NCBI RefSeq assembly: GCF_003987215.1
Contig: NZ_PIPW01000004.1
Coordinates: 124,001-188,000 of the forward strand
Direction of reading: 5' to 3'
From: Pseudidiomarina halophila
Lineage (GTDB): Bacteria > Pseudomonadota > Gammaproteobacteria > Enterobacterales > Alteromonadaceae
Length of the DNA: 64,000 bases
Part shown: piece after piece, positions 16,897 to 53,430 of the stretch
Numbering within the stretch: the stretch's first letter is position 1
How the letters are laid out: every line of letters begins with the position of its first letter
The notes under the pieces: model-generated
What the model was told of the DNA's origin: nothing
The model's input: only the letters and a program-made list of their open reading frames with translations
The model's database searches: none
Program-made: the position numbers and the translations under genes

Positions 16897-16952
16897 CTGT
16901 CATGAAGTCTTCACAGTGGCGTCACTTAGCTGTCATAAAAAATCCCTAAAGT
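16897..16952 (+). promoter_or_regulatory. Pho-box array and -10 of the lipoprotein/TonB-receptor operon
   Basis: Four 7-bp half-sites start at 16897 (CTGTCAT), 16908 (TCTTCAC), 16919 (GCGTCAC) and 16930 (CTGTCAT), exactly 11 bp apart, the layout of two tandem PhoB boxes. Ten bp after the last half-site is TAAAGT (16947-16952), a plausible -10, with no sigma70 -35. This is the standard architecture of a PhoB-activated promoter. It lies between a histidine kinase gene and the lipoprotein gene and points at the latter. Confidence 0.85.
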
Positions 16953-16997
16953 GCCAGCACGAAAATAAATTTCGCCTTCAATCCAATGGAGAATTTC

Positions 16998-18470
16998 ATG
17001 AATCGCACTAAAGCTTTCGCTCTGTCCGCACTTACTGCTTCTTTTATGCTTGCTGGTTGTGGTGGTGATATTAACCTGACCCCAACTTCTATCGATAACT
17101 CAACCACCAATAACGGTGGTGGGGCAGCTCCCGATACCAACAACTGTGCATCTTATGAAGATGCCGGCGCTACGGTACGGGGTGAAAAAATTGGCGCGGA
17201 TTGTGTTTATCCACGTAGTTTCTCGACGCCAGAGAGTCCAGTCGTCACCGATATTCGTCTGGTCGAATTGCCAGGTGGCGCACATATTTTTCCAAATGGT
17301 TTGTACATTGGTGAAAATGTACAGGAAACTGCCAGCGTTGAGCGCGACGGTCCGACTCTGACCATCGATGCTGGTGCGACCCTGGCCTTTGAAGACGGCG
17401 ATTCATTTGTGCGTATCGCACGTGGCGCCGACATCATTGCGGAAGGTAATCGTAATGCGCCTATTACCTTTACTTCAGTACAAGAAGTGGAAAATGGTGT
17501 TAGCAATCCGAACGCACGTGGCTTGTGGGGCGGATTGGTAATTAATGGTTTTGGTATTTCAAACAAGTGTGATCAGGACGATCTGGCAAACTGCGTATTG
17601 CAGGGTGAAGGTGGTGCTGGTTTCTACGGTGGTGATGACAACGCTGATGATTCAGGCATCCTGCGTTATGTGTTGGTCAAATACGCTGGTTATGAAGTTT
17701 CTCTTGATAACGAATTGAACGGGATCACCTTCTACGGTGTGGGTTCAGGTACCACCGTTGAATACATTCAGGTTCACAACAACCTCGATGACGGCATCGA
17801 GTTTTTTGGCGGTGCTGCGAACGCGAAATACGTGGTGCTGACTGGCAACGACGATGACTCACTAGACTGGGCTGACGGCTGGCAGGGCAACATCCAGTAC
17901 ATCGTCACCAAACACGCAGATGACCGTGCCAACCGTGCTATCGAAGCTGACGGCAATAGCCGCAATAATGGCGCGACACCTTATTCAGACCCAATCATTG
18001 CTAACTTCACTTCAATTGGCTCGTTGACGGCTACTGACGGTTCTGATGAATCTGAAGGCGTGCTGCTACGTCAGGGTACGCGCGGTACCTTGTATAACTT
18101 CGTCATCACTGATGCGCGCGGCGAATGTCTGGAAATCGACAATGATGCCACCTTTGCGAACGCAGATGCAGGTAATTTGACCATCGCAAACTCGGTGATT
18201 GCATGTCATGAAAACTTCGCTGATGTCGCCACCCAAACCTGGTACGAGAACGAAGCCACCAACGTCACGCTCGACGAAATGGCTACAGTGTTGACCTCTG
18301 GCTATGTCACCGCAGCTGAAATGACTGATGCATCTGGCGCACCAGTTACCGTAACGCCGAAAACAGATTTAAGCAGCATCGACCCGTTCTTTGACGATGT
18401 TGATTTCATCGGTGCGGTAAGCGAAGACAATGATTGGACAAACGGCTGGACCGTAGGCCTGCGCGACTAG
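16998..18470 (+). CDS. Secreted lipoprotein with right-handed beta-helix-like repeats, Pho-box controlled
   Basis: Putative outer-membrane lipoprotein of 490 residues. Signal peptide with lipobox LAGC (Cys21), then a low-complexity Asn/Gly linker and a long repetitive region rich in short beta turns: TIDAGATLAFEDGDSFVRIA, APITFTSVQ, GLWGGLVINGFG, TVEYIQVHNNLDDGIEFFGG and LTGNDDDSLDWADGWQGNIQ, a pattern typical of parallel beta-helix proteins. It is very acidic. GGAG at 16986-16989 fixes the ATG at 16998; an ATG overlapping that site would have no ribosome site. The TonB receptor follows after 70 bp without a terminator, so it may present a ligand to that receptor. Ligand unknown. Confidence 0.8.
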   Translation: MNRTKAFALSALTASFMLAGCGGDINLTPTSIDNSTTNNGGGAAPDTNNCASYEDAGATVRGEKIGADCVYPRSFSTPESPVVTDIRLVELPGGAHIFPNGLYIGENVQETASVERDGPTLTIDAGATLAFEDGDSFVRIARGADIIAEGNRNAPITFTSVQEVENGVSNPNARGLWGGLVINGFGISNKCDQDDLANCVLQGEGGAGFYGGDDNADDSGILRYVLVKYAGYEVSLDNELNGITFYGVGSGTTVEYIQVHNNLDDGIEFFGGAANAKYVVLTGNDDDSLDWADGWQGNIQYIVTKHADDRANRAIEADGNSRNNGATPYSDPIIANFTSIGSLTATDGSDESEGVLLRQGTRGTLYNFVITDARGECLEIDNDATFANADAGNLTIANSVIACHENFADVATQTWYENEATNVTLDEMATVLTSGYVTAAEMTDASGAPVTVTPKTDLSSIDPFFDDVDFIGAVSEDNDWTNGWTVGLRD

Positions 18471-18540
18471 TTAAGGAACTGGAGCACAAGGACGTGCAGC
18501 TTTTCCCGCTAATTATCATGTCACGCATACGGAGTTTCCT

Positions 18541-21177
18541 ATGAAAAAGCAGGCTGTATTAACGCAAAGTAAACTGGGCCTCGCGATCGCTCTCGCGTTG
18601 TCTGGACCCATTGCTTACGCTCAGGAATCTGATGCGCAAGCGACGAGCGATACGACCATTGAAGAAGTTGTCACCACAGGAACACGTTTGCAGGGCTCAG
18701 CCGCGGCCGTTGTCGAAGAGCGCAAAGCTCAGGCGTTTGTAGCTGATATCCTTGGAGCTGAACAAATTTCCCGAACGGGCGATAGCGATGCTGCGGCGGC
18801 GTTGCGACGGGTCACTGGTTTGACGCTGGTTGACGGTAAGTTTATCTATGTCCGCGGTCTTGGTGAGCGCTATTCAAGCACGCAACTTAACGGCGCCTCG
18901 GTTCCCTCGCCGGATCCAACGCGTAATGTCATCCCGTTGGATATGTTCCCGGCAAGCATTATCGAAAGTATGTCGGTGCAGAAGTCCTATTCACCGGACA
19001 TGCCCGCCAACTTTGGTGGTGGTAACGTCGATATCCGTACGGTTTCAATTCCGACTGACCAAGTCTTTGATGTTTCGGTGGGTACCGGCTGGAATACCAA
19101 CTTTTCCGACGACGGTCTGAGCTACCAGGGGGGCGGCGATGATTGGTTGGGTAAGGATGACGGAACCCGGGCCTTATCACCTGAGATGGTAACTGCGTTG
19201 GCGCGTTATCAGGAAACAATCAACACCGCTAATATCGCTGCTAGCGAAGGAATTTCCACAGCGGAAGCGGCTGCAATCAATCGCCAGTTAGCGGCATCAC
19301 TTAACACCGAAAATGAAGTTTACTCAAAATCTCTGAGTCCTGATATTGATGGTTCGGTGACCTACGGTAATGCTTATGATATTGGCCATGATCTGACTTT
19401 TGGTTTTCTCGCTGGTGTGGATTATGGCAACAGCTGGTCAAATAGCGAAGAATCGGAATTGGTATTAGGCATTGCTGACGGTGAAGCAGCTGTTGATCAG
19501 GCAAGCGAGAGTCGGGTAACCACGCAGAATGTGGAACTAAGCAGCTTGCTCAACTTTGGCCTGAAGCTGGGTGACTACCACCGGGTAGAAACCTCGACCA
19601 TTTTCTTACGCAATACTTCTGATCGGGTTGAACAGGGTGTGGTTGAAACGCCTAACTCGATTGATGAAGAAGGTTTGAGTTATTTTGATACGGATATCCG
19701 TTATGAACAACGCGAATTGCTGACCAACCAGATACGTGGGTCTCATTACTTTCCACAATTCTGGGGTTTTGCACTGGACTGGCAATACGCCGATTCACGC
19801 GCAAGTCGTGATGCGCCGGGCGAAGTTTTCTATCGGCAAATTAACGATCGTGATCTAGGTGAGGGCTTGGGGAATCTGGCGTTCCAGCAAACGCGTACAG
19901 CAACCACCTTGCAGTATCAAATATTGGAAGATGACGCACAAGACTGGCGCGTCGACGGTGAATTACCCCTTTATCTGGCAGAAATGGACATTCTCCTGAA
20001 AGGTGGCGGCCAGGTCTCGAAAAAAGCCCGGTCATCCTTTTCACGACGCTTTGCGATAAGCGCCGAACAAGTTGCCAATGATGCCCTGCAGAATGTCGGC
20101 TACAACGATTTGTTTAGTGACGCCAACCTTACCGACCAAGATTTTGGATTTGCTCTGTTCGGTGCGCCTACGGCTACAGATCCCAATTACTTAGCTGCGC
20201 AACAAGTTGAAGCCGGGTACGGTCTTGCCGATATACAGGTCAATGACGACTGGCGCGTCAGTGGTGGTTTGCGCTGGGAGCAGTACACTCAGGTAGCAGC
20301 GCAATTAGACCTTCGCAACATGACGGTTATCGGCGATCCTGCCGAAGCTGGACGCGTTGAAGATGATGTCTATGGCTCTTTAGCGTTAACCTATCAACTT
20401 AACGATGAGATGCAGTTAAGGGTTGGTTACGGCAGCACCGTAGTGCGTCCGGACTTGCGCGAATTAACCGAAGTGATTTTCGTCGATCCGCTGACCGACT
20501 TTAAAGTACGCGGTAACAGTGAGTTGATGACCACTGATATCGATAACTTTGATGTGCGTTGGGAATGGTATTTGCCGGCCGGAGAAAACTACTCGGTGGC
20601 AATGTTTTACAAAGACTTAGCCAACCCGATTGAAGCTGTTGAGGCAAAAGGTACCGACTCAGATCGGGTCATCACTTTCCTCAATGGTCAATCAGGCGAA
20701 GTCTACGGTTTGGAATTTGAATTTCTGAAAGACCTGACATTCTTATCCGACGGCTTGTTTTTATCAGGCAACCTGACGTTATCTGATTCAGAAATCAGTA
20801 TTGCCAATACCGGTAACGTTGAACTGACCAACAATACCCGGCGGATGACCGGTCACTCCAAATACGTGACAAATCTTCAGCTGGGTTATGATTCATTGAA
20901 TGGTGAACACAGTGCATCATTGATTTATAACGTCGCCGGTGAGCGCATTGCGTTTGCAGGGGTAAAAGAAGGTGCGGTAGGTATCGGTGATGCCGTCGAG
21001 CAACCTTTCCACAGCCTTGACCTGGTTTATACCTACTACCCGGACTTCAGTTCGAAAGTGAAGTTGAAGGTACAAAACATGCTTGGTGAGGATGTTGAAA
21101 TCCAGCAAAATGGGCGTTTGATCCAAAGTCGTAGTGTCGGCACTGGAATTAGTCTTGAATACAGCTACTCTTTTTAG
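18541..21177 (+). CDS. TonB-dependent outer-membrane receptor, Pho-box operon
   Basis: Outer-membrane active transporter of 878 residues. A signal peptide ends near residue 28 (IAYAQES), a TonB-box-like IEEVVTTGTR follows, then the plug domain (about 60-190: AAAALRRVTGLTLVDGKFIYVRGLGERYS, quoted in part, and VDIRT), then a beta-barrel ending in LEYSYSF with C-terminal Phe. GGAG seven bases before the ATG supports the start. It is the second gene of the operon behind the Pho-box array at 16897, followed by a strong terminator. The same region encodes a complete TonB complex, so uptake of a phosphorus compound is a reasonable inference; the substrate is not shown by sequence. Confidence 0.92.
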   Translation: MKKQAVLTQSKLGLAIALALSGPIAYAQESDAQATSDTTIEEVVTTGTRLQGSAAAVVEERKAQAFVADILGAEQISRTGDSDAAAALRRVTGLTLVDGKFIYVRGLGERYSSTQLNGASVPSPDPTRNVIPLDMFPASIIESMSVQKSYSPDMPANFGGGNVDIRTVSIPTDQVFDVSVGTGWNTNFSDDGLSYQGGGDDWLGKDDGTRALSPEMVTALARYQETINTANIAASEGISTAEAAAINRQLAASLNTENEVYSKSLSPDIDGSVTYGNAYDIGHDLTFGFLAGVDYGNSWSNSEESELVLGIADGEAAVDQASESRVTTQNVELSSLLNFGLKLGDYHRVETSTIFLRNTSDRVEQGVVETPNSIDEEGLSYFDTDIRYEQRELLTNQIRGSHYFPQFWGFALDWQYADSRASRDAPGEVFYRQINDRDLGEGLGNLAFQQTRTATTLQYQILEDDAQDWRVDGELPLYLAEMDILLKGGGQVSKKARSSFSRRFAISAEQVANDALQNVGYNDLFSDANLTDQDFGFALFGAPTATDPNYLAAQQVEAGYGLADIQVNDDWRVSGGLRWEQYTQVAAQLDLRNMTVIGDPAEAGRVEDDVYGSLALTYQLNDEMQLRVGYGSTVVRPDLRELTEVIFVDPLTDFKVRGNSELMTTDIDNFDVRWEWYLPAGENYSVAMFYKDLANPIEAVEAKGTDSDRVITFLNGQSGEVYGLEFEFLKDLTFLSDGLFLSGNLTLSDSEISIANTGNVELTNNTRRMTGHSKYVTNLQLGYDSLNGEHSASLIYNVAGERIAFAGVKEGAVGIGDAVEQPFHSLDLVYTYYPDFSSKVKLKVQNMLGEDVEIQQNGRLIQSRSVGTGISLEYSYSF

Positions 21178-21196
21178 CAAAGCTGGTAGTGATGAT

Positions 21197-21225
21197 AAAA
21201 CGGGAGCTTCGGCTCCCGTTTTTTG
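21197..21225 (+). terminator. Rho-independent terminator after the TonB receptor
   Basis: An 8-bp perfect stem ACGGGAGC / GCTCCCGT (21200-21207 and 21212-21219) closes a TTCG tetraloop and is followed by TTTTTT. Upstream A residues extend the pairing. It ends the lipoprotein-receptor operon 20 bp after the receptor stop. Confidence 0.92.
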
Positions 21226-21250
21226 TTATACAATAGGGAAACAAAAGCGT

Positions 21251-21311
21251 TGTTGGTTATTGGATATTAGTTATTGGTTTAAACCAACAGCGAACAGCCA
21301 ACAGCGAATAG
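21251..21311. repeat. Short palindromic and tandem repeats upstream of the MscS gene
   Basis: This gap holds GGTTATTGGATATTAGTTATTGG (21255-21277, quoted as a motif of 23 overlapping the next units; core TTATTGGATATTAG), an inverted relative of the 21-bp repeats at 53242-53313. It overlaps a perfect palindrome TTGGTTTAAACCAA (21274-21287). Two 14-bp tandem units follow, CCAACAGCGAACAG (21284-21297) and CCAACAGCGAATAG (21298-21311). No coding sense or known mobile element is seen. Confidence 0.75.
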
Positions 21312-21342
21312 CAAAAAATCAGATAGCGGGTAACTACTTTTT

Positions 21343-22617
21343 ATGCAGGAAGTGCAGGAAACATTAGAACAGGCCGAAAGTTGGCTGGCAGAGCGACCCG
21401 ATGTAGACACCTTAACAAAGTTAGCGCTGCTGTTAGCCGGTGCCTGGGTGGCAAATTTTATCGTGAAAAAAATCCTGCTGCGTGGCTTATTGCGGATTTT
21501 AAGCTATACGCCAGCAGGTAAAGACCGCCAGGCGATTGAACGAAATATTGTGGCGCGCATTGCGAATGTCGTTCCCGCACTGGTTATTGCCTTTGGTATT
21601 ACTTCGGTACCAAATTTATCTGACGAAGTGACAATTATTGTAACCAACGTCTGCTATGCGTTTATTGTCATTACCATCGCCCGGGCGATCAGCGGCACCC
21701 TGACAATTGTTAACACCCTCTATGAGCGCCAGCCGGAAGCACAGACACGGCCAATCAAAGGCTATATTCAGGTCGCCAAAATAGTGATTTACGCGGTGGC
21801 GACGATTTTGATGATTGCCGTGCTAATCGACAAGTCACCGGTTATCTTGCTGTCCGGCTTAGGTGCCATGGCAGCAGTATTGATGTTGGTGTTCCAGGAT
21901 ACCTTGCTAAGTCTCGTTGCCAGCGTCCAGATAACCTCTAATGACATTATTCGTGTCGGAGACTGGGTTGAGATGCCCAACTTGAACGCCGATGGTGACG
22001 TGATCGATATTGCCTTACACCAGGTCAAAGTACAGAACTGGGATAAGACCATTACCTTTATCCCTACGCGGCGCTTTATTTCCGACCCGTTTAAGAACTG
22101 GCGCGGCATGCAGGAGTCGGGTGGACGGCGGATTAAACGCAGCCTGCTGGTGGATCAGCAAAGCATTCACTTTTTGACTGACGATGAACTTAAAGCGGTG
22201 AAACGCTTTCGCTTGTTGAAAAGCTACCTGCAAAGCAAGCAGCAGGAAATCGACGACTGGAACCAACAACTTAAAGACGAAGGGAAAGAACCAGTCAATA
22301 CCCGGCGTATTACCAATATAGGTACTTTCCGCGCGTACATTTTGCAGTACCTGGAAAACCATCCCAAGGTCCATCAGGAAATGACCCTGATGGCGCGGCA
22401 ACTGAATCCAACCTCGGACGGTTTGCCCATCGAAGTCTATTGTTTTACCAATACGATTGCCTGGGCCGAATACGAAGGGATCCAGTCGGACATCTTTGAC
22501 CATTTGTTATCTATTCTGCCGGAGTTTGGTCTACGTGTATTCCAGCACCCAAGTGGTATAGATATGCGGGAAATGACACGAAACCTACATGAAAGTGGCA
22601 CAAAAAGTTCATCCTGA
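21343..22617 (+). CDS. Mechanosensitive ion channel, MscS family (YbdG-like)
   Basis: Inner-membrane channel of 424 residues. Several N-terminal hydrophobic segments (about 25-190) lead to the pore helix and MscS beta domain: LLSGLGAMAAVLMLVFQDTLLSLVASVQ, quoted in part, then NDIIRVGDWVEMP, ADGDVIDIALHQVKVQNWDKTI and FIPTRRFISDPFKNWRGM. These match the YbdG/MscM branch more closely than MscS itself, including the long C-terminal domain after residue 260. The ribosome site is weak. It sits alone between the receptor terminator and the next Pho-box array, whose first half-site overlaps its stop codon. A link to phosphate stress is only positional. Confidence 0.9.
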   Translation: MQEVQETLEQAESWLAERPDVDTLTKLALLLAGAWVANFIVKKILLRGLLRILSYTPAGKDRQAIERNIVARIANVVPALVIAFGITSVPNLSDEVTIIVTNVCYAFIVITIARAISGTLTIVNTLYERQPEAQTRPIKGYIQVAKIVIYAVATILMIAVLIDKSPVILLSGLGAMAAVLMLVFQDTLLSLVASVQITSNDIIRVGDWVEMPNLNADGDVIDIALHQVKVQNWDKTITFIPTRRFISDPFKNWRGMQESGGRRIKRSLLVDQQSIHFLTDDELKAVKRFRLLKSYLQSKQQEIDDWNQQLKDEGKEPVNTRRITNIGTFRAYILQYLENHPKVHQEMTLMARQLNPTSDGLPIEVYCFTNTIAWAEYEGIQSDIFDHLLSILPEFGLRVFQHPSGIDMREMTRNLHESGTKSSS

Positions 22618-22669
22618 CATAAAACTGACATAAGCCGGTCACCAAGCTGTCATACAACTGACGTATCTT
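22614..22669 (+). promoter_or_regulatory. Five-unit Pho-box array of the DUF3450-TonB operon
   Basis: Half-sites start at 22614 (CTGACAT), 22625 (CTGACAT), 22636 (CGGTCAC), 22647 (CTGTCAT) and 22658 (CTGACGT), all exactly 11 bp apart. TATCTT (22664-22669) lies 10 bp after the fourth unit and can serve as -10. The fifth unit may be a downstream extension that overlaps the -10. The first unit overlaps the stop codon of the MscS gene. Confidence 0.85.
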
Positions 22670-22705
22670 GCACATCATCATTCACAACGTGTGCAAGGTG
22701 TTTCC

Positions 22706-23482
22706 ATGAAACAATGTTTCGCTCGCACGCTGGTGCTTGCCAGCCTCCTGGCGAGTACCAGTGCAGTTGCTCAAGACCAGACGCTTGAGCCGGTGGTTGA
22801 TGCCGCCAATGAAATCAATCAAGCCGCCCGCTCCTCACAATTAACCGTCGATCAAATCGCCGATACCACCCAAGAGCGACTTCAGCAGTTCAAGCAAATC
22901 AACCGCCAAATCGAGGGTCTGGAAGTTTATGTCCAGCAACTGCAGCGGCAGATTGACTTCCAGCAGCAGGAAAAGTCGGAGTTAAACACTGCGATTGATG
23001 AAGTCAGTGTGGTCGAACGCCAAATCACCCCCCTCATGCTGCGCATGATTGATAGCCTTGAAACCTTTGTAAATCTCGATGTTCCTTTCTTACCCAATGA
23101 GCGTGAAAACCGCATCATCAACCTCAAAGATCTGATGGATCGGGCAGACGTGGATGTTTCTGAGAAGTTCCGCCGGGTGATGGAAGCCTACCAGATTGAG
23201 GCCGACTACGGTCGCTCGATCGAAGCTTACAACGGTGAAATGCAAGTTGGTGGGCAACTGCAGGATGTCGAATTCCTGCGCATCGGCCGTACGGTGTTGA
23301 TTTACAAGACCCGCGATGGAGAAGCCATGGGGGTATGGAACCAGAATCAACGGCAATGGCAGGAGTTAGATTCAGGCTATCGCAGCAGTGTTCAGGAAGC
23401 ATTGCGCATCGCCCGTAAACAGCTTGCTCCTGACTTATTGATGTTACCGGTATTCACTCCATCTTCGCAGGCAGGAGAATAA
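22706..23482 (+). CDS. DUF3450 periplasmic coiled-coil protein of the TonB system
   Basis: Exported 258-residue protein: signal peptide to about residue 22 (SAVAQ), then a long helical coiled coil (about 30-110, rich in Gln/Glu/Leu) and a globular DUF3450 domain with FLPNERENRI, VMEAYQIEADYGRSIEAY, FLRIGRTVLIYKT and LDSGYRSSVQEALRIARKQ. DUF3450 genes regularly precede TtpC-ExbB-ExbD-TonB operons in Vibrio and related genera. The ATG at 22706 starts a clean signal peptide; an upstream in-frame GTG adds five residues. It heads the Pho-box operon, with ttpC 3 bp downstream. Molecular role unknown. Confidence 0.88.
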   Translation: MKQCFARTLVLASLLASTSAVAQDQTLEPVVDAANEINQAARSSQLTVDQIADTTQERLQQFKQINRQIEGLEVYVQQLQRQIDFQQQEKSELNTAIDEVSVVERQITPLMLRMIDSLETFVNLDVPFLPNERENRIINLKDLMDRADVDVSEKFRRVMEAYQIEADYGRSIEAYNGEMQVGGQLQDVEFLRIGRTVLIYKTRDGEAMGVWNQNQRQWQELDSGYRSSVQEALRIARKQLAPDLLMLPVFTPSSQAGE

Positions 23483-23485
23483 TTC

Positions 23486-24841
23486 ATGTTGAAACTTAAA
23501 CATTGCATTGCTGCTTTAGCGTTAGTGGTTGCGGCACCGGGCATGAGTCAGGAACCGGTGAACCTTGATCAACTGCTACAACAATTAAAAGCAGGCAAGT
23601 TTGCTCAGTCGCAAGCCAATGAAGAACGCGAAGCACGCTTCCGCGCTGAAGCGGCGCAGCAGCAACAGATTTTGCGCGAAGCCATTGCCAAGCGGGATCA
23701 ACTGGAACAAACCAGTGCCCGACTGGAAAGCCAGTTTGAAGGCAATGAGCGTGATCTGGCTGCGTTAGAAGACGCACTCACCCAGCGAATGGGCTCATTA
23801 AAAGAGCTTTTCGGTGTGCTCCAGCAGGTGGCCGGTGATACCGCCAGCAATCTGCGCAACTCCTACGTATCAGTAGAGTTTCCAGGTCGCAGTGATGCGC
23901 TGAATGAGTTGGCCGAGAAAATGGGCTCCAGCTCGAAACTGGCGACCATCGAAGAAATTGAGTCAGTGTGGTTTGCGCTGCAACAGGAAATGACCGAATC
24001 AGGTAAGGTGAGTGAGTTTTCCACCGAAGTAACTTTAGCCAACGGCGAGAAAACAACTAAGCCGGTGATTCGTGTGGGCACCTTTAATATGGTCGCTGAC
24101 GGCAAGTACTTAGAACTTATTCCAGGTACAGATGCGGTAGCCGAACTGGTTCGCCAGCCCGGCAGCCGATACCTCGACACGGCGGAGGCGCTGGAGCAGA
24201 GTAACGACAACCCGGTACGTTTTGGTCTTGACCCGACCGGCGGTTCAATTCTCGGCTTATTAGTACAAGCGCCAGGCTTAAAAGAGCGCATCGATCAGGG
24301 CTCCACGGTCGGCTATATCATTCTTGCTTTGGGCGTTATCGGTCTGCTTATCGCGCTGGAACGCTTCGTTACCCTGACCCTGATGGGCGGTAAAGTAAAA
24401 CGCCAGCTGAAAAACGATAAAGCCCAGCAGGATAATCCCCTGGGGCGCGTCATGGCGGTGAAAGATAAGTATCCGGACGTCGACACCGAAACCCTGGAAT
24501 TAAAACTCAGTGAAGCGATTCTGCGTGAGGTGCCACGTATTACCCGTAACCTGACCTTTATTAAAATCATCTCTGTGGTTGCCCCGTTACTGGGTTTGCT
24601 CGGAACGGTTACCGGCATGATCAATACCTTCCAGGCGATAACTCTGTTTGGCACCGGCGACCCGAAACTGATGGCGGGCGGTATTTCGCAGGCATTGGTA
24701 ACCACAGTACTTGGACTGGTGGTTGCGATTCCGATGACGCTTCTATTCGCCACCTTGAATACGCGTAGCAAAAATCTGGTTCACGTATTGCAGGAGCAGG
24801 CGTCGGGCATCATTGCGGAGCGCTCTGAGCGGGGGCACTAA
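23486..24841 (+). CDS. TtpC-type MotA/TolQ/ExbB proton channel protein
   Basis: Fourth component of TonB2-type systems, required in Vibrio for TonB2 function. The 451-residue product has a signal peptide, a periplasmic coiled coil (about 25-115), a beta-rich periplasmic domain (to about 265) and a C-terminal MotA/TolQ/ExbB domain: STVGYIILALGVIGLLIALER, quoted in part, LGRVMAV, and VAPLLGLLGTVTGMINTF with the family motif. GGAG precedes the ATG. Directly between DUF3450 and ExbB genes. It differs from the next gene, the short ExbB, by about 270 extra N-terminal residues. Confidence 0.92.
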   Translation: MLKLKHCIAALALVVAAPGMSQEPVNLDQLLQQLKAGKFAQSQANEEREARFRAEAAQQQQILREAIAKRDQLEQTSARLESQFEGNERDLAALEDALTQRMGSLKELFGVLQQVAGDTASNLRNSYVSVEFPGRSDALNELAEKMGSSSKLATIEEIESVWFALQQEMTESGKVSEFSTEVTLANGEKTTKPVIRVGTFNMVADGKYLELIPGTDAVAELVRQPGSRYLDTAEALEQSNDNPVRFGLDPTGGSILGLLVQAPGLKERIDQGSTVGYIILALGVIGLLIALERFVTLTLMGGKVKRQLKNDKAQQDNPLGRVMAVKDKYPDVDTETLELKLSEAILREVPRITRNLTFIKIISVVAPLLGLLGTVTGMINTFQAITLFGTGDPKLMAGGISQALVTTVLGLVVAIPMTLLFATLNTRSKNLVHVLQEQASGIIAERSERGH

Positions 24842-24843
24842 TC

Positions 24844-25374
24844 ATGGTGTTCTTTATCGACTTTTATAGTGCGATTCAGGACTTTGTCGAAACCGGCGGT
24901 CAGGTACTCCTGATTATCGGCATCCTGATTTTCATCATGTGGTTGATGATCCTGGAGCGCATCTTTTATTACACCCGCAAGCACCAGCAGGAGAAAAAGC
25001 GGGTATTGCAGAAGTGGAAGGATAGGGACGATAAATCCTCATGGAATGCGGAACAAATCCGCCAGGCCATGATTTCGCGGGTTTCTATCGCCCTGGGCGG
25101 ACCACTTCCGATTCTGCAGGCATTGGTCGCACTGTGTCCGTTACTGGGTTTGATGGGCACAGTCACCGGCATGATTGAAGTGTTTGACGTCATGGCGGTG
25201 GCGGGTACAGGCAATGCGCGCTCAATGGCGGCTGGTGTTTCAAAGGCCACCATTCCAACCATGGCTGGCATGGTCGGCGCGCTGTCCGGGGTGTTTGCCA
25301 CCACCTGGTTACAACGGACAGCCAAACGTGAACGCCTTAAACTTGAAGATCGCATGCTAATGGAACACCACTAG
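24844..25374 (+). CDS. exbB: ExbB-type biopolymer transport protein
   Basis: Inner-membrane proton-channel subunit that with ExbD energises TonB. The 176-residue product has three hydrophobic segments: about residues 18-38 (GQVLLIIGILIFIMWLMILER, in part), LQALVALCPLLGLMGTVTGMIEVF in part, and IPTMAGMVGALSGVFATTWLQ in part, with the conserved TVTGMI motif. Spacing to ttpC is 2 bp and to exbD 11 bp, so all are one transcript. Short form typical of ExbB2. Confidence 0.94.
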   Translation: MVFFIDFYSAIQDFVETGGQVLLIIGILIFIMWLMILERIFYYTRKHQQEKKRVLQKWKDRDDKSSWNAEQIRQAMISRVSIALGGPLPILQALVALCPLLGLMGTVTGMIEVFDVMAVAGTGNARSMAAGVSKATIPTMAGMVGALSGVFATTWLQRTAKRERLKLEDRMLMEHH

Positions 25375-25385
25375 AGGGCATTTAG

Positions 25386-25793
25386 ATGAAACAGCATTTT
25401 GCAAATTTGATTGACGAAGAAGAAACTCAAATTGATATGACGCCCATGCTCGACGTGGTGTTCATTATGTTGATCTTCTTCATTGTTACGGCGAGCTTCG
25501 TGAAAGAATCTGGTATTGATGTCAATCGCCCTGAGGCGGCCACGGCAGTGCAAAAGGATCGCGCGAACATTCTGGTGGCCATCAGTGATACGGGTGAGAT
25601 CTGGATCAACAAACGACAGGTCGATGTACGCGCAGTACAGGCAAACATCGAACGTTTGTATGCTGAGAATCCGCAGGGGTCAGTGGTGATTCAGGCAGAT
25701 AAAAAATCAACTACTGAAACACTGATAAAAGTTATGGACGCCGCGCGAGCCGCGGGTGTCTTTGATGTCTCGATCGCCGCGCAGGAAGAGTAA
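25386..25793 (+). CDS. exbD: ExbD-type biopolymer transport protein
   Basis: TonB-complex subunit of 135 residues with one transmembrane helix and a periplasmic domain. The helix begins DMTPMLDVVFIMLIFFIV and holds the conserved proton-pathway Asp23. The periplasmic part has ILVAISDTGEIWINKRQV and VVIQADKKSTTETLIKVMDAAR, in part, the ExbD/TolR fold. GAGG upstream supports the start. Lies between exbB and tonB. Confidence 0.95.
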   Translation: MKQHFANLIDEEETQIDMTPMLDVVFIMLIFFIVTASFVKESGIDVNRPEAATAVQKDRANILVAISDTGEIWINKRQVDVRAVQANIERLYAENPQGSVVIQADKKSTTETLIKVMDAARAAGVFDVSIAAQEE

Positions 25794-25798
25794 AGTCT

Positions 25799-26404
25799 AT
25801 GCGTTTTTTAGCAGCACTCGCCGTTGCCGCCATAGTGACACTGGGTTTGTTTTACCTGATGCAGTCGCTTATTACTGGCGGACAAGGCGCAATGACTGAA
25901 CCACCAAAAGGTAGCGTGTTGGATTTTGTCCGCGTAAAGCCCGAAGAAGTGGTTCAGGAAAAAGATCGCAAGCCCGAGCGTCCACCGGAGCCGGAAGCGC
26001 CGCCACCGGACATGCCAGCGCCGCAAATGGACAGCAGTGATCTGGTGCCGGATGCCCGTGGTTATGATTTTTCCGCGACCGCACAAGCGGACACCGGGCT
26101 TGGCGGAGGTATGAATCTGGATGCCAGTGACGGCGAGTACCTGCCCATCGTTAAGGTTCAGGCCGCCTACCCACGCCGTGCCTTGCAACGTGGTATTGAA
26201 GGTTACGTAGTAGTGGAATTTACCGTAACCCGTCAGGGTACCGTGCGTGAGCCGCGGGTGGTTGCAGCACAGCCCGAACAGATTTTCGATCAGGCTGCCA
26301 TGGAGGCCGTCCTGAAGTTTAAATACAAACCTCGCGTAGTTAATGGTGAAGCTGTCGAAGTAGAAGGCGTGCAAAACCGGATTACGTTCGAGATTGATGG
26401 CTAG
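25799..26404 (+). CDS. tonB: TonB family energy transducer (TonB2-like)
   Basis: Periplasm-spanning protein that carries energy from ExbBD to outer-membrane receptors. The 201-residue product has an N-terminal membrane anchor (about residues 3-26), a Pro/Glu-rich spacer (ERPPEPEAPPPDMPAPQ) and a TonB C-terminal domain with AAYPRRALQRGIEGYVVVEF and the VLKFKYKPRVVNG end. The spacer is short, as in TonB2 of Vibrio. Because it is encoded behind a Pho-box array near a Pho-box TonB receptor, it may be dedicated to that receptor; other receptors could also use it. Confidence 0.93.
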   Translation: MRFLAALAVAAIVTLGLFYLMQSLITGGQGAMTEPPKGSVLDFVRVKPEEVVQEKDRKPERPPEPEAPPPDMPAPQMDSSDLVPDARGYDFSATAQADTGLGGGMNLDASDGEYLPIVKVQAAYPRRALQRGIEGYVVVEFTVTRQGTVREPRVVAAQPEQIFDQAAMEAVLKFKYKPRVVNGEAVEVEGVQNRITFEIDG

Positions 26405-26414
26405 GAGAAGCGCT

Positions 26415-27677
26415 ATGCGTAAATTCATCGTACTTATAGGCTGGGTTCTGTTCAGTCAGTTTCTTCATGACGCAGCAATCGCTCAGGACAGTAAGCGGGT
26501 GCCCGCCTTACGTGAACAGGTTTATAGCCAATTGGCGCGGGCGCAGGAACTCGCTGATGGCGGCGATGTCGATGCCGGTCTGGAAGCCTTAAAGAATATC
26601 GAAACGAAGCTCGGGAGTATGAACAGCTACGAACGCGCCATGCTATGGAATTTTTACGGTTACATGCATTATGGCAAAGATCGGGTGACCGAGGCGTTGC
26701 ACTATTTTGATAAAGTCGTGCAAGAAGAGCCGATTCCTGATGCGCTAAAGCAAAACACGTTATTTAGCTTAGCGCAGCTGGCATTAGGTCAGGGTGATTA
26801 TGCGGAAACACTTGATTATCTGTCCCGCTGGGAACAGGTAGCAGGGGATGAGCAGGCAAGCAAAGCCGATGTGCTGCGTGCTCAGGCGCTGTACCAAAAA
26901 GGCGATTACCAGCAAGCCTTAGCGCCAATAAAACGGGCGATAAAAGCTGCCCAGAGCCAGGGTGAATCAGGCGATGAGAACTGGTATGTGCTGCAGCGCG
27001 CGATTCACTACGAGTTAGGGCAAACCGCAGCGGTTGCCGACGTTCTCGAGCAGATGATCAAGTACTTCAATAAGCCTGACTACTGGATTCAGTTGGCCGG
27101 GGTTTACGGTCAACTTGGCCAAGATGAGCAGCAGTTAGCAATGCTTGAAGCAGCCTACCAGCAAGGCTTTCTCAGCGAAGGTCAGGATCTGCAAATGCTG
27201 GTGCAAAGCTACTTCTTTGGTGGCGTGCCCTATAAAGCGGGTCGGGTAATGGAACAAGCCATTGAACAAGGTAAGCTGGAAGCCGACCTGCGTAATTTAA
27301 AATTGCTGGCGCAGAGCTGGATTGCCGCAAAAGAAACGGACAAGGCCGTTGCTGCATTGCAACGCGCAGCTGAGCTGAGCAACGATGGCGAGCTGGATGC
27401 GCAACGTGCGCAAGTTTTGCTAAATTCTGAACGATACGCTGACGCCATAACCGCCGCCAAGACCGCACTGGCAAAAGGTAATCTGGAAAAACCAGGCACC
27501 ATGCACTTAGTCATTGGCATGGCTGAGCTTGAACAAGAGAACTATAATCCTGCGCTACAGGCTTTTGCCAAAGCCAAAGCCTTCGAAGAAGCGCGTAAAG
27601 CAGCTGCTCAGTGGGAACGTTTCGCTACCTCTGAAAAGGAGCAGGCAGAACGGCTAAAACAACTGCAGTCGTCATAA
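26415..27677 (+). CDS. Exported TPR-repeat protein of the TonB operon
   Basis: Last gene of the operon; 420 residues with a signal peptide (to about residue 22, AIAQD) and TPR-like helical repeats throughout: MLWNFYGYMHYGKDRVTEALHYFDKV, in part, LFSLAQLALGQGDYAETLDYLSR in part, AQALYQKGDYQQALAPIKRA, and GMAELEQENYNPALQAFAKAK in part. TPR genes close TonB2 operons in Vibrio and relatives. AGGAG at 26403-26407 fixes the ATG at 26415; an in-frame upstream codon lacks a ribosome site. A scaffold role in the periplasm is likely but not shown. Confidence 0.88.
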   Translation: MRKFIVLIGWVLFSQFLHDAAIAQDSKRVPALREQVYSQLARAQELADGGDVDAGLEALKNIETKLGSMNSYERAMLWNFYGYMHYGKDRVTEALHYFDKVVQEEPIPDALKQNTLFSLAQLALGQGDYAETLDYLSRWEQVAGDEQASKADVLRAQALYQKGDYQQALAPIKRAIKAAQSQGESGDENWYVLQRAIHYELGQTAAVADVLEQMIKYFNKPDYWIQLAGVYGQLGQDEQQLAMLEAAYQQGFLSEGQDLQMLVQSYFFGGVPYKAGRVMEQAIEQGKLEADLRNLKLLAQSWIAAKETDKAVAALQRAAELSNDGELDAQRAQVLLNSERYADAITAAKTALAKGNLEKPGTMHLVIGMAELEQENYNPALQAFAKAKAFEEARKAAAQWERFATSEKEQAERLKQLQSS

Positions 27678-27734
27678 AAACGACACGCAACGGCAATGAG
27701 AACGACATAAAAAGTTTATTGGATCGACAAAAAA

Positions 27735-27776
27735 CTGTCATACAGTCATGAAACTGTCATAAAGTTGCAATATGCT
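27735..27776 (+). promoter_or_regulatory. Pho boxes and -10 of the porin gene
   Basis: CAGTCAT (27743-27749) and CTGTCAT (27754-27760) form an 11-bp-phased pair, with TATGCT (27771-27776) exactly 10 bp downstream as -10. A further perfect CTGTCAT at 27735 is out of phase with this pair but in phase with weaker upstream half-sites at 27669, 27680 and 27702 (TCGTCAT, ACGACAC, ACGACAT), so a second array may lie upstream, starting in the TPR gene end. Confidence 0.83.
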
Positions 27777-27837
27777 AGGCGCGTTTGAGTGGTAATCGAC
27801 CGCTCGATCCCAAATTTAGCTAGTGTAGGTGACCGTT

Positions 27838-28785
27838 ATGACTTTTAAACATGTGGCTTTGATGATGCTTCCGTTGGCTGTGCTCAGTGCACCGGTAGTT
27901 GCTCAGGACGACAACCAGGCTCCTAAAATCAGTTTTGATTTTTATGGTAAAGCAAATGTTTCATTGCAAAGCAATGATGATGGCTCAGGTAGTGAAACTG
28001 AATTAGAAAGCAACTCGTCACGTATTGGGGTGAAGGGCGGCAGCAAAATCAGTGACGATCTGGAAGTTATTTATCAGCTCGAGTGGCAGGTTGATCTTGC
28101 TGATTTAGGTGGTGACGATAACCTTAAATCACGTAACCAGTTTGTCGGTTTGCGCGGCAACTTTGGTGAAGTGACAGTGGGGCGTCGCGACACGGTATTG
28201 AAAACTGTTCAGGGCGATATCGACCAGTTCAGTGACTACGTCGCCGACGTGAAAGGCCTGTTTGAAGGTGAAAACCGGACCAGTAACACTGTTTCGTATT
28301 ACTCGCCCAGTTTGAACCATTTCCGGGTTGCCGGTAGCTGGGTGTTGAGTGAAGATGATGCTCAGGACGATGGCTACTCATTAGCGTTAACCTACGGTGA
28401 CGACGGGCTGGACGATACGGGTTATTATTTTGGTGCGGCAATGGATCGCGATGTGGACGGTTATGATATCGAGCGTCTGGTCGGTTACACCAAAGTAGCA
28501 AACACCATGTTTGGTCTGATGTGGCAACAGCAGGAACGCGTTGACGGCACCGCCGAAGCTGATGGCTTCGTTGCCAGCGTCAAACAACCCTGGGGCAACT
28601 TCAGCTTCAAAGCCCAGTATCAGATCATGGACTTTATCGATGGTGAAGACGACGCCTTTTCATTTGGTGTCGACTATAAACTTGCGAAAAGCACCAAACT
28701 GTTCACCTGGTACACTGGCCGCGACCGCGAAACCATTGAAGCGGAACAACGCTATATTGCTGTGGGTATCGAACATAAGTTTTAA
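27838..28785 (+). CDS. Outer-membrane porin (Gram-negative porin family), Pho-box controlled
   Basis: General-porin-type beta-barrel of 315 residues. Signal peptide to about residue 23 (APVVAQ), then the porin_4 pattern: SFDFYGKANVSLQS, SNSSRIGVKGG, LEVIYQLEWQVD, SRNQFVGLRGNFGEVTVGRRDT and the C-terminal YIAVGIEHKF ending in Phe. The ribosome site GTAGGTG at 27825-27831 fits the ATG at 27838; a GTG inside that site is the alternative. With a Pho-type promoter it is the likely counterpart of PhoE-type anion porins, but anion preference cannot be read from sequence. Confidence 0.88.
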   Translation: MTFKHVALMMLPLAVLSAPVVAQDDNQAPKISFDFYGKANVSLQSNDDGSGSETELESNSSRIGVKGGSKISDDLEVIYQLEWQVDLADLGGDDNLKSRNQFVGLRGNFGEVTVGRRDTVLKTVQGDIDQFSDYVADVKGLFEGENRTSNTVSYYSPSLNHFRVAGSWVLSEDDAQDDGYSLALTYGDDGLDDTGYYFGAAMDRDVDGYDIERLVGYTKVANTMFGLMWQQQERVDGTAEADGFVASVKQPWGNFSFKAQYQIMDFIDGEDDAFSFGVDYKLAKSTKLFTWYTGRDRETIEAEQRYIAVGIEHKF

Positions 28786-50029: not shown

Positions 50030-50716
50030 ATGTCCAGAAAAATACTGATCGTTGAAGATGAAGCGCCCATTCGTGAGATGTTGAGCTTTGTCATGGAACA
50101 GCACGGCTATCAAGCAGTTGAGGCGGGTGATTATCAACTGGCGTTAGAGAAAATCGTGGAACCCTTTCCCGATATGATTCTACTCGACTGGATGTTGCCA
50201 GGCGGCTCTGGCATTCAGTTGGCGAAAAAATTAAAAACTGATGATTTCACCCGCGGCATCCCCATCATTATGCTTACCGCACGCGGTGAGGAAGAAGATA
50301 AAATCCGCGGCTTAGAAGTCGGCGCTGACGATTACATTACCAAGCCTTTTTCACCGAAAGAACTGATGGCGCGTATGCGGGCCGTGTTCCGCCGCGTGTC
50401 GCCTACTGTATTAGACGAGCCATTAGAGATTGAAGGGCTCAAGCTTGACCCAGTCTCGCATCGTGTCAGCGCATATAATGACCGTCTGGATATGGGCCCC
50501 ACCGAATTTAAATTGCTACACTTCTTTATGACACACCCTGAACGCGTGTATAGTCGGGAGCAACTCTTAGATCATGTTTGGGGAACCAACGTTTATGTCG
50601 AAGACCGCACTGTTGACGTGCATATTCGCCGTTTACGCAAAGCTATCGAAATGCATGGCCACGACCGTTTGGTGCAAACCGTACGCGGTGTCGGCTATCG
50701 CTTCTCCAGTCGCTAA
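50030..50716 (+). CDS. phoB: Phosphate regulon response regulator PhoB
   Basis: DNA-binding response regulator that activates Pho-box promoters when phosphorylated. The 228-residue product has a receiver domain with acidic pocket (VEDEAPIRE), phospho-acceptor Asp53 ([11 protein letters not shown]), Thr in MLTARGEE and Lys105 ([13 protein letters not shown]), then an OmpR-type winged helix with [20 protein letters not shown] (in part), [13 protein letters not shown] and VRGVGYRFS. phoR follows after 19 bp. It is the likely regulator of all the Pho-box promoters in this window. Confidence 0.97.
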
Positions 50717-50735
50717 ACCACAAGGTTAGCGGAGC

Positions 50736-52043
50736 ATGGATAAAAAGTACTCAGTTTTCTTTATCCTGCGAGGCTTTTTGTGGTACCTCGCGCCACTTGC
50801 CCTGCTGGGATGGTTGGTCGGTTCTTTTTGGCAGACCCTGACCATTGGTTTGTTTGCTCTTCTGGTCTGGCATTATTACTTTCATTACAAGCTTGTCGAC
50901 TGGCTCTGGAACCGCCGCGCTCTGCTCCCGCCCAGTGCGCCCGGAAGCTGGAGTTATATTTACGATGGTATCTATCGAACCCAGCGTCGCAGCCAGCAAC
51001 GCCGGCGCGCTCTGGCGCGGATTTTACGGCGTTTTCGTGAAGCCTCTGAAGCGATCCCCGATGCGGCAATCGTGTTCCGTCGTGATGGTGGTTTGATTTG
51101 GTGTAACCGGTTGGGGCAGTTTTACTTTGGCTTAAAGTGGCCGGGGGATACGGGTATTCGGTTGTCGAGCCTGATTCGGCATCCGGCGTTTATTAGTTAC
51201 CTGCAGAAGGGCGATTTCACCGATGAGATCTATTTGCCTTCACCGGTCCGTGAAGACATCGAATTAGAGATTCGCATCATGCCTTATAGTGATGACCAAT
51301 TCCTGTTGATGGCGCGTGATGTCACCCAGTTACGGCAACTTGAACAAATGCGCAAAGAATTCGTAGCCAATGTGTCGCACGAATTGAAAACCCCGCTGAC
51401 GGTAATTCAGGGCTATCTGGAAATGTTCGATGATGATCCTGCCGCAATGCCGCCGGCAATGTTGCAAAAAGCAGTAAAAGACATGAGCGGGCAAAGTACC
51501 AGAATGCGTAATCTGGTTGATCAACTGCTCTCCTTGTCGCGCATTGACTCAGCCCGGGGCGATATCTTCGAACGTGTAGTCAATGTGCCTGATGTATTAA
51601 AACGACTGCAGCATGATGCCGAACGACTCAACAAAAATAAACAGCATCAGCTGGTTTTCGAGATTGCCGGGCAATCAATGTACGGCCATGAAGATGAGTT
51701 ACGTAGCATATTTTCAAATCTCATCACCAATGCGATTCACTATACCCAGCCGGCAGGTAAAATTACCGTGCGCTGGCGCCCGGTGGGCGATCAAATGGAA
51801 TTCAGCGTCAGCGACAATGGCCCTGGCATTCCGGCTGAGCATATGCCCAGAATTACCGAACGTTTTTACCGGATTGATAAAGACAGAAATAGTAGCAAGG
51901 GTGGCTCAGGTTTGGGTCTGGCGATTGTCAAACAGGCGGTTGATCATCATCACGGTAAGCTGACCATCGACTCAGTTGTCGGGCGCGGTTCAACCTTTAG
52001 CGTCCGTATTCCCCAGGAACTGGTAGTGACTGAACAGTCTTAA
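50736..52043 (+). CDS. phoR: Phosphate regulon sensor kinase PhoR
   Basis: Inner-membrane kinase/phosphatase partner of PhoB. The 435-residue product has two close N-terminal hydrophobic segments (about 9-50) with almost no periplasmic loop, a basic cytosolic linker, a PAS domain (about 100-200), His215 in FVANVSHELKTPLTVI, and an ATPase domain with NLITNAIHYT, DNGPGIP, RFYRID and GSGLGLAIVKQ. The lack of a periplasmic sensor fits the known model in which PhoR reads the state of Pst and PhoU. AGCGGAG supports the start. Confidence 0.96.
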   Translation: MDKKYSVFFILRGFLWYLAPLALLGWLVGSFWQTLTIGLFALLVWHYYFHYKLVDWLWNRRALLPPSAPGSWSYIYDGIYRTQRRSQQRRRALARILRRFREASEAIPDAAIVFRRDGGLIWCNRLGQFYFGLKWPGDTGIRLSSLIRHPAFISYLQKGDFTDEIYLPSPVREDIELEIRIMPYSDDQFLLMARDVTQLRQLEQMRKEFVANVSHELKTPLTVIQGYLEMFDDDPAAMPPAMLQKAVKDMSGQSTRMRNLVDQLLSLSRIDSARGDIFERVVNVPDVLKRLQHDAERLNKNKQHQLVFEIAGQSMYGHEDELRSIFSNLITNAIHYTQPAGKITVRWRPVGDQMEFSVSDNGPGIPAEHMPRITERFYRIDKDRNSSKGGSGLGLAIVKQAVDHHHGKLTIDSVVGRGSTFSVRIPQELVVTEQS

Positions 52044-52116
52044 TGACATTAAATTGGCAGAAATATGACACTAATTTAGAATTTGTCATTAAAGTGTCAC
52101 ATTGACAGCTTAAACT
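52043..52116 (+). promoter_or_regulatory. Pho boxes and -10 of pstS
   Basis: TTGTCAT (52083-52089) and GTGTCAC (52094-52100) form an 11-bp-phased pair with TAAACT (52111-52116) exactly 10 bp downstream. Further upstream, ATGACAT, TTGGCAG and ATGACAC begin at 52043, 52054 and 52065, again 11 bp apart, forming a second array on a different phase. Confidence 0.85.
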
Positions 52117-52170
52117 CCGCAGTGTCATTTGAACAAAAGCTGCACGGCAGCATTGACGATTGGAGTCATT

Positions 52171-53142
52171 ATGAAAGTTAAAACAGTTCTTCTTGCTTTA
52201 GGCTTAGCTGGCGTTGTTGCTACATCTGCACACGCTCAAAAACCGACCGATAACCTTCCTGAATACGAAAAAGTAAGTGGCCTTTCAGGCAACTTGTCAT
52301 CAGTAGGTTCTGACACTCTGGCCAACATGATGACCTTCTGGGCCGAAGAGTTTAAGCGTCTTTATCCAAACGTTAACATGCAAATTCAAGCTGCTGGTTC
52401 ATCAACTGCGCCGCCAGCACTTACCGAAGGTACTTCAAACTTTGGCCCAATGAGCCGCAATATGAAGTCGAAAGAAATCGAATCGTTCGAGAAGCGTCAC
52501 GGTTATAAGCCGACACCAGTGCGTGTTGCTATTGATGCGTTGGCTGTATTTGTGCATAAAGATAACCCGATTAAGGGCATGACCATTGCAGAAGTTGATG
52601 CGGTATTCAGCTCAACCCGTCTGTGTGGCGCGACCAGCCAGGTACAGCGCTGGGGTGATCTGGGCCTTGAAGGCAGCTGGGCAGGCCGCGACTTACAGCT
52701 TTATGGTCGGAACTCAGTGTCTGGCACCTATGGTTTCTTCAAAGAAGAAGCATTATGTGACGGCGATTTCCGCGCTAACGTCAATGAGCAGCCGGGTTCT
52801 GCGTCAGTAGTGCAGTCAGTATCAACCTCGCTGAATGCCATTGGTTATTCAGGTATTGGTTATATGACCTCAGGCGTTAAAACGGTGCCTCTAGCGGTAG
52901 TCGAAGGTGGAGAATACGTAGACGCGACGACTGAGAGCGCTCTGGCTGGTAAGTACCCACTTGCGCGCTTCCTGGTGGTTTACGTGAACAAGCACCCGAA
53001 CAAGCCGTTAGATCCTGCAACAGCAGAATTCCTGAAAATGGTACTGTCAAAAACCGGTCAGGAAATTGTCGATAAAGACGGCTATATTCCGTTACCAAAA
53101 GTTGTAGTAGAGCAAGAGTTAGAAAAACTCGGCTTAAACTAA
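52171..53142 (+). CDS. pstS: Phosphate ABC transporter substrate-binding protein PstS
   Basis: Periplasmic phosphate-binding protein of 323 residues. Signal peptide ends near residue 22 (ATSAHAQ); binding-site segments are [19 protein letters not shown] (in part), [20 protein letters not shown] and [19 protein letters not shown] seven bases before ATG 52171 fixes the start; an upstream in-frame codon would disrupt the signal peptide. Followed by its own strong terminator, so it is expressed separately from pstCAB-phoU, each with a Pho promoter. Confidence 0.96.
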
Positions 53143-53154
53143 GAGCTACATCAG

Positions 53155-53182: not shown

Positions 53183-53183
53183 C

Positions 53184-53313: not shown

Positions 53314-53333
53314 GCTCTTGTTTTTTTTGAATA

Positions 53334-53387: not shown

Positions 53388-53430
53388 CTCGGCCAATCGA
53401 ATTAAACTTGCGAAACCACTCGAGGTAATA

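What the first reader, a model, noticed from the sequence alone, without database searches (positions are those of the whole stretch)
16897..28785. Candidate phosphate-starvation TonB uptake system with its own energising complex
Within 12 kb, three Pho-box promoters control a beta-helix lipoprotein plus TonB receptor, a full DUF3450-TtpC-ExbB-ExbD-TonB-TPR operon, and a porin. TtpC/TonB2-type operons are known mainly from iron uptake in Vibrio (established). Here the sequence links the whole machine to phosphate control, suggesting active outer-membrane import of a phosphorus source too large or too scarce for porins, with the lipoprotein as a surface or periplasmic binding partner. The inference goes beyond named systems I recognise and is the best candidate for an undescribed system here.
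Basis: partly seen in the sequence, partly recalled or inferred. Interest (0 to 1): 0.8.

Follow-up and report, generated by a model that had tools for sequence, protein, structure and literature searches.

The report
Phosphate-starvation uptake module with own motor
A marine bacterium carries, under what look like phosphate-starvation switches, a surface lipoprotein, its outer-membrane gate and a private energy-supplying motor, suggesting that it actively pulls in some larger phosphorus source when phosphate runs out.

Summary
In detail: tandem 11-bp Pho boxes precede three units in 16897-28785: lipoprotein + TonB-dependent receptor (TBDT), a six-gene TonB2-type motor (ttpB/DUF3450, ttpC, exbB, exbD, tonB, ttpD/TPR), and a porin. 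phoBR-pstSCAB-phoU lies 21 kb away. What I saw in no paper is the motor. Its TtpC forms one clade; 55 of 61 rows carry a Pho box, against 4 of 48 other TtpC. In 247 genomes of the order, all 20 with this motor also have ElpS, against 21 of the other 227. Full motors also sit near ElpS and a TBDT in distant proteobacterial records, diverged and in other gene orders. Most likely it is a PhoB-controlled two-part outer-membrane importer of organic phosphorus with a dedicated motor; substrate, binding and transport are untested. P. aeruginosa has a PhoB-dependent exbB2-exbD2-tonB4 set, so this is a new variant, not a new kind.

The parts
16897..16940 (+). Pho box array, four 11-bp half-sites, upstream of the lipoprotein gene
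   Evidence: (four-half-site score 28.2, 0 of 300 shuffles)
16998..18470 (+). ElpS-family lipoprotein (lipobox LAGC, parallel beta-helix model)
   Evidence: family by synteny in L225; no Pfam or NCBIfam family matched
18541..21177 (+). neighbouring TonB-dependent receptor; conserved IEEVV stretch ahead of the plug is a probable TonB box (recalled reading)
   Evidence: (TIGR01782, 205 bits, below its cut-off of 310)
21205..21228 (+). terminator-like hairpin and T-run after the receptor gene
   Evidence: read by eye; no terminator scan was run
21343..22617 (+). MscS-type channel gene between receptor and motor; no Pho box; probably not part of the system
   Evidence: stays next to ttpB in congeners where the ElpS pair lies elsewhere
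22614..22668 (+). Pho box array, five 11-bp half-sites, upstream of ttpB
   Evidence: (four-half-site score 38.0, 0 of 300 shuffles)
22706..23482 (+). ttpB (DUF3450, PF11932)
   Evidence: E 3.2e-89; name after PMC6957404
23486..24841 (+). ttpC (DUF3450-like N-terminus + MotA_ExbB)
24844..25374 (+). exbB
25386..25793 (+). exbD
25799..26404 (+). tonB
   Evidence: TonB_C
26415..27677 (+). ttpD (TPR protein; ATG 26415 taken as start, the longest ORF begins at 26394)
   Evidence: name after PMC6957404
27743..27764 (+). Pho box upstream of the porin gene (further imperfect half-sites from 27702)
27838..28785 (+). porin (Porin_4); PhoE-like role by regulation only
   Evidence: Pho-box match also in congeners
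50030..58933 (+). phoB, phoR, pstS, pstC, pstA, pstB, phoU: the likely regulator and the positive controls for the Pho-box matrix
   Evidence: (named by reading the translations)

Best explanation
A PhoB-controlled, TonB-dependent outer-membrane import module for organic phosphorus. When phosphate falls, PhoB turns on three units: (1) an ElpS-family beta-helix lipoprotein and its TBDT, (2) a dedicated TonB2-type motor TtpB-TtpC-ExbB-ExbD-TonB-TtpD, (3) a porin for small phosphate compounds. The lipoprotein, at the cell surface, binds or presents a phosphorus-containing polymer or oligomer; the TBDT takes it through the outer membrane on energy passed by its own motor; periplasmic phosphatases and PstSCAB finish the job. 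Shown here: gene content, Pho boxes and their conservation, the motor clade, co-occurrence and linkage, predicted folds of both outer-membrane parts. Inferred: PhoB binding, surface location (from Caulobacter ElpS), physical pairing of lipoprotein and TBDT, motor-receptor pairing, import and its substrate.
For: Pho boxes above shuffles at the three unit starts. A TBDT gene lies within 2 kb of the lipoprotein gene in 69 of 80 named loci, 2-7 kb away in 8 (in most of these the motor lies between), and is not in the stretch held in 3. Lipoprotein promoters scoring above 95% of random stretches of the same loci: 45 of 78, about 4 expected; 32 of 64 in loci without this motor clade (2 of 80 too short). 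Motor: TtpC at 59% identity or more to the window's has a Pho box before ttpB (shuffle p<=0.05) in 55 of 61 rows, other TtpC (48% or less) in 4 of 48; with identical proteins counted once 52 of 58 against 4 of 46; Fisher p 3e-19 for the first count, but the rows are related, so not independent. One clade, SH-aLRT 100. In 247 genomes of the order the clade is in 20, all with ElpS; ElpS is in 21 of the other 227; from these coordinates the two lie within 10 kb in 14 of 20, within 25 kb in 17, on different contigs in 3. Of 35 genomes of genus and family, the 3 without the lipoprotein (G003, G028, G033) have one DUF3450 gene each, of the other clade. In the window's genome 1 of 20 PF00593 matches lies within 12 kb of a TtpC operon. 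Six-gene motors stand near ElpS and a TBDT in Nitrosomonas L211 (Pfam-checked), deltaproteobacterial L180 (three motor genes Pfam-checked), Wenzhouxiangella L167, Marinicella L215 and unnamed L200, L204; five of six genes in L192. Literature: Caulobacter ElpS is surface-exposed and induced by phosphate, not iron or ammonium, shortage, beside TBDT cc0171 (PMC2996285).
Against: No transport or expression data for these organisms. In Caulobacter cc0171 was reported as expressed in rich and poor media alike, its deletion did not stop ElpS production, no change in intracellular phosphate was seen, and ElpS overproduction raised alkaline phosphatase activity in the medium (PMC2996285), which points at mobilisation outside the cell. 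21 ElpS genomes of the order do without this motor. 6 of 61 motor promoters in the clade show no Pho box, three of them from Pseudoalteromonas (L166, L177, L203). 33 of 78 lipoprotein promoters show none by this matrix, L180 and L225 among them. The window genome has PhoA, with a moderate promoter match (10.5), and no PhoX; no phosphatase adjoins the module. No complex of lipoprotein and receptor was modelled.
Confidence: 0.58

Rival explanations
1. ElpS works outside the cell as an activator or anchor of secreted phosphatase activity, and its TBDT serves its display, release or signalling, not nutrient import; the motor powers that.
For: In Caulobacter ElpS overproduction raises alkaline phosphatase activity in the medium, ElpS is released from the surface, and a type II secretion system follows the pair (PMC2996285; same gene order in Phenylobacterium L225).
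Against: 16 or more loci carry a Ton motor next to the pair (secretion genes were not searched for there); the receptor model is a plugged barrel like importers (mean pLDDT 74.7, first 112 residues poor).
Confidence: 0.2
2. The motor is a general phosphate-starvation spare that energises any PhoB-induced TBDT (such as the two Oar-like receptors at 41394-48607) and is not tied to ElpS.
For: One Oar-like TBDT has a good Pho-box match (14.5, 0 of 500 shuffles), the second a weaker one (11.5, p 0.022); in part of the genus the motor lies apart from the ElpS pair.
Against: All 20 motor genomes in the order sample have ElpS; distant lineages join ElpS, TBDT and a motor in one locus.
Confidence: 0.15
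3. Ordinary iron-type TonB2 system; the Pho boxes are incidental.
For: The Vibrio TonB2 system of the same six genes serves siderophore uptake and is iron-controlled (PMC6957404).
Against: Pho boxes in 55 of 61 rows across several genera; Fur-like 19-mers better than shuffles (p<=0.05) in only 1 of 61 (weak test).
Confidence: 0.04

Closest known systems
ElpS (CC0170) with TBDT CC0171 of Caulobacter crescentus (PMC2996285)
   Same: Phosphate-starvation lipoprotein with an adjacent TBDT; lipobox LAGC; same gene order lipoprotein-TBDT.
   Different: The Caulobacter pair is followed by a type II secretion system; here by a Ton motor. No Ton motor is described for it in the passages read.
PUSIII/PUSIV loci of Flavobacterium johnsoniae (FI/FII lipoprotein + TBDT, PMC8115612)
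   Same: Low-phosphate-induced lipoproteins near TBDTs, reported there to share 31-36% identity with the Caulobacter protein.
   Different: Different phylum; no motor described in the text read.
Vibrio TonB2/TonB3 systems (TtpB-TtpC-ExbB-ExbD-TonB-TtpD; PMC6957404)
   Same: The same six kinds of gene, ttpB first and ttpD last.
   Different: TonB2 is iron-induced with a likely Fur site; this clade carries Pho boxes. No Vibrio sequence was placed in the tree by name, so kinship to TonB2 or TonB3 is open.
exbB2-exbD2-tonB4 of the P. aeruginosa PUMA3 regulon (PMC7035377, PMC4971064)
   Same: A putative TonB system expressed in phosphate starvation under PhoB.
   Different: Needs sigma-VreI too; no TtpB/C/D in the gene list read; neighbours lapA, hxc and pdtAB; no ElpS in the passages read.
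SusCD/PusCD importers (SusCD recalled; PusCD in PMC8115612)
   Same: Surface lipoprotein + TBDT logic; PusCD is induced by low phosphate.
   Different: The lipoprotein here is a beta-helix, not a SusD fold.

Membership tests
ElpS family of phosphate-starvation lipoproteins | Homology to Caulobacter ElpS | tested here: inconclusive
   The ElpS sequence was not at hand. A 39%-identical homologue in a Phenylobacterium MAG (family of Caulobacter, recalled) has the reported order lipoprotein-TBDT-gspC-D-E-F-G-H (gsp genes named by reading translations). Strong but indirect.
ElpS family of phosphate-starvation lipoproteins | Lipobox and adjacent TBDT | tested here: met
   LAGC near the N-terminus; TBDT 70 bp downstream; TBDT within 2 kb in 69 of 80 named loci
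ElpS family of phosphate-starvation lipoproteins | Expression under phosphate starvation | not testable with these tools
   Only the Pho box was tested
TonB2-type (TtpC) motor | Six genes ttpB-ttpC-exbB-exbD-tonB-ttpD | tested here: met
TonB2-type (TtpC) motor | Iron/Fur control (Vibrio TonB2) | tested here: inconclusive
   19-mer scan: p<=0.05 in 1 of 61 of this clade and 3 of 48 of the other; it finds few Fur sites in either, so it has little power
Pho regulon member | Pho box (11-bp direct repeats) upstream | tested here: met
Pho regulon member | PhoB binding and PhoB-dependent transcription | not testable with these tools
   needs gel shift and a phoB mutant
SusCD-like importer | SusD-fold surface lipoprotein (recalled as TPR-rich) | tested here: not met

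The most novel reading that the evidence does not exclude
ElpS-family lipoproteins, their TBDTs and TtpBCD-type Ton motors form a widespread two-part importer for phosphorus polymers or oligomers (phytate-like, nucleic acid, lipid or teichoic-type phosphates), put together repeatedly or kept since early proteobacteria, and in Alteromonadales run by a motor lineage that became PhoB-controlled and specialised for it: outer-membrane transport with its own nutrient-specific motor.
Probability: 0.35. Interest if true: 0.78.

Novelty: new variant of a known kind. Interest (0 to 1): 0.6.

Why it matters
Phosphorus limits growth in parts of the ocean, and many TBDTs of marine bacteria have no known substrate (both recalled). 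If a TonB motor is specialised for phosphorus, it ties a lipoprotein family found from Proteobacteria to Bacteroidetes and Poribacteria to active import, gives ElpS a testable role more than a decade after its description, and shows that Ton motors can be dedicated to a nutrient other than iron through their own regulation.

Tried and rejected
Whole-genome count of loose Pho boxes: control nearly as high as signal, not used. PDB sequence searches with lipoprotein and receptor: no hit. Pfam and NCBIfam for the lipoprotein: no family at E 0.001. Foldseek on the lipoprotein model gave no match under E 0.001; the second look by VIA-align gave beta-helix matches, which show fold, not function. Fur-box contrast between the two TtpC clades: no contrast. 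Alteromonas macleodii transport paper (PMC7190382): term search found no phosphate, PhoB or TtpC. Virocell phosphate paper (PMC12282109): no TonB. Idea that the module carries its own phosphatase: none recognised beside it; PhoX absent, PhoA elsewhere in the genome. Idea that the mscS gene belongs to the system: no Pho box. Placing the motor clade against Vibrio TonB2/TonB3: no named Vibrio sequence was at hand.

Literature searches behind 'saw in no paper': (open-licence PMC only; listings and starts of abstracts). Passages were read in PMC2996285, PMC6957404, PMC8115612 (also one whole section), PMC7035377, PMC4971064, PMC11208175, PMC7190382 and PMC12282109; no paper was read whole.
Full report
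What is there. The window lies in a 2.6 Mb genome of the genus that holds Pseudidiomarina aquimaris: the TtpC row of the named P. aquimaris contig L147 is identical to that of same-genus genome G016. Between 16897 and 28785 run a lipoprotein gene, a TBDT gene, an mscS gene, the six genes ttpB (DUF3450), ttpC, exbB, exbD, tonB, ttpD (TPR), and a porin gene, all on the + strand. A hairpin with a T-run follows the receptor gene (read by eye), so lipoprotein + receptor look like one transcription unit and the motor like another.

Pho boxes. A half-site matrix typed from the recalled E. coli consensus was scanned over 42 promoters of the window (500 shuffles each). No shuffle was as high for porin, ttpB, pstC, lipoprotein and oar1; pstS and phoB follow at p 0.002 and 0.004. 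Receptor, mscS, ttpC, exbB, exbD, tonB and ttpD have none. One promoter outside the expected set, guaB, reaches 11.8 (p 0.008). The matrix thus finds known Pho genes and the three units of the finding. phoB-phoR-pstS-pstC-pstA-pstB-phoU lie at 50030-58933 (named by reading).

The lipoprotein-receptor pair. The lipoprotein gene is in 34 of 59 genomes (own included), 25 of 26 in the genus. In the 29 fetched stretches with the lipoprotein scored (the thirtieth locus there is the second motor of the window genome) the TBDT follows it. Of nine such stretches from other genera of the family and order, eight have a lipoprotein of double length; one (G032) is single. The Phenylobacterium locus L225 shows lipoprotein-TBDT-gspC-D-E-F-G-H, the order described for elpS (cc0170), cc0171 and gspC-N in Caulobacter (PMC2996285). 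That paper reports surface exposure, phosphate-dependent induction, the neighbouring TBDT, and conservation in Shewanella and Bacteroides, and suggests a functional interaction. PMC8115612 reports low-phosphate lipoproteins FI-FIII with 31-36% identity to the Caulobacter protein; FI and FII have TBDT neighbours. PMC11208175 puts various TBDTs and the type II secretion system in the Caulobacter PhoB regulon. So phosphate-starvation ElpS-TBDT pairs are known; uptake through them is not shown.

The motor. The genome has two DUF3450/TtpC operons. TtpC identities to the window's fall in two sets, 59% or more and 48% or less. In the upper set 55 of 61 promoters of ttpB carry a Pho box at shuffle p<=0.05, in the lower 4 of 48; with identical proteins counted once 52 of 58 and 4 of 46. 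The upper set is one clade with SH-aLRT 100 (quick method; the tool warns that long branch L143 joins near it). The six misses are L166, L177, L203 (Pseudoalteromonas), L241, L244, L246. Rows are related, so not independent. In 247 genomes of the order the upper set occurs in 20 (18 of 19 of the own family, 2 others), each with the lipoprotein; the lipoprotein occurs in 21 more. From the coordinates of both calls the two are within 10 kb in 14 of 20. In the genus, 11 fetched relatives keep lipoprotein, TBDT and motor together as in the window (L073 without porin match, L074 without mscS match), and in 10 the pair lies without the motor in the 17-18 kb read; there lipoprotein and motor promoters still match the Pho box (10 of 10 each). 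The three family members without the lipoprotein also lack this motor.

Beyond the order. Profile searches of the 80 named loci found ExbD or TonB in the stretch of 24: 13 are Alteromonadales of the clade above; the others are L167, L180, L192, L198, L200, L204, L211, L212, L215, and L179 and L209 with a weak TonB hit only. L211 (Nitrosomonas MAG) has ttpB-ttpC-exbB-exbD-tonB-ttpD-TBDT, Pfam-checked, then the lipoprotein, whose promoter has the best Pho-box score (21.8). L180 (deltaproteobacterial MAG) has lipoprotein-motor-TBDT, with regulator and kinase genes 41% and 35% identical to PhoB and PhoR in matched segments on the other side, but no Pho box by this matrix (p 0.85). In L215 motor and TBDT point away from the lipoprotein. 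L212 has tonB-ttpD-TBDT-lipoprotein and, 1.7 kb further, pstC-pstA-pstB. The profiles were built from the window, L211, L180 and, for the receptor, L225, so L211 and L180 match by construction; the Pfam check is independent. No background rate for motors near other TBDTs was measured except in the window's genome (1 of 20).

Reading. The steady company of surface lipoprotein, TBDT and a full Ton motor, under Pho boxes, is best explained by energy-driven passage of something across the outer membrane in phosphate starvation, and import of a phosphorus compound is the simplest such thing. The substrate is unknown. The view that ElpS acts outside the cell and the TBDT does not import has published support in Caulobacter and stays open.

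Known or new. The six-gene motor is of the TonB2 type (PMC6957404). A phosphate-starvation TonB set under PhoB and sigma-VreI, exbB2-exbD2-tonB4, is known and called uncharacterised in P. aeruginosa. I saw no paper that joins a TtpC motor with phosphate control or with ElpS, in a library without most subscription journals. Verdict: a new variant of a known kind, well supported as a conserved module with Pho boxes, unproven as an importer.

Noticed in passing
window 41394-44576 (-) and 45278-48607 (-): Two Oar-like TBDTs near phoB; the first has a good Pho-box match (14.5 at -87), the second a weaker one (11.5), so the Pho regulon here may hold three TBDTs.
   Followed up: partly
window 48675-49943: Endonuclease/exonuclease/phosphatase-like lipoprotein (by reading) between an Oar-like TBDT and phoB; no Pho box of its own.
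   Followed up: no
L085-L092, L164, L166, L201 and others: ElpS-family proteins occur as tandem double and, in some Alteromonas and Pseudoalteromonas loci, triple beta-helix units.
   Followed up: partly
L212 5976-11143: pstC-pstA-pstB matches 1.7 kb downstream of the lipoprotein of a tonB-ttpD-TBDT-ElpS cluster.
   Followed up: no
L035 (G000:C3:222022): A strong Pho-box-like site (18.7) with no long frame over it; what it controls was not found.
   Followed up: partly
window 21343-22617 and congeners: An mscS gene stays beside ttpB even where the ElpS pair lies elsewhere, yet has no Pho box.
   Followed up: partly
window upstream of 31209 (guaB): Weak Pho-box-like match (11.8, p 0.008) before guaB; may be chance among 42 promoters.
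   Followed up: no
L185, L195, L199, L205-L207, L209, L210, L211-L213, L222, L224, L226: In these records the TBDT stands upstream of the lipoprotein, the reverse of the order here.
   Followed up: no
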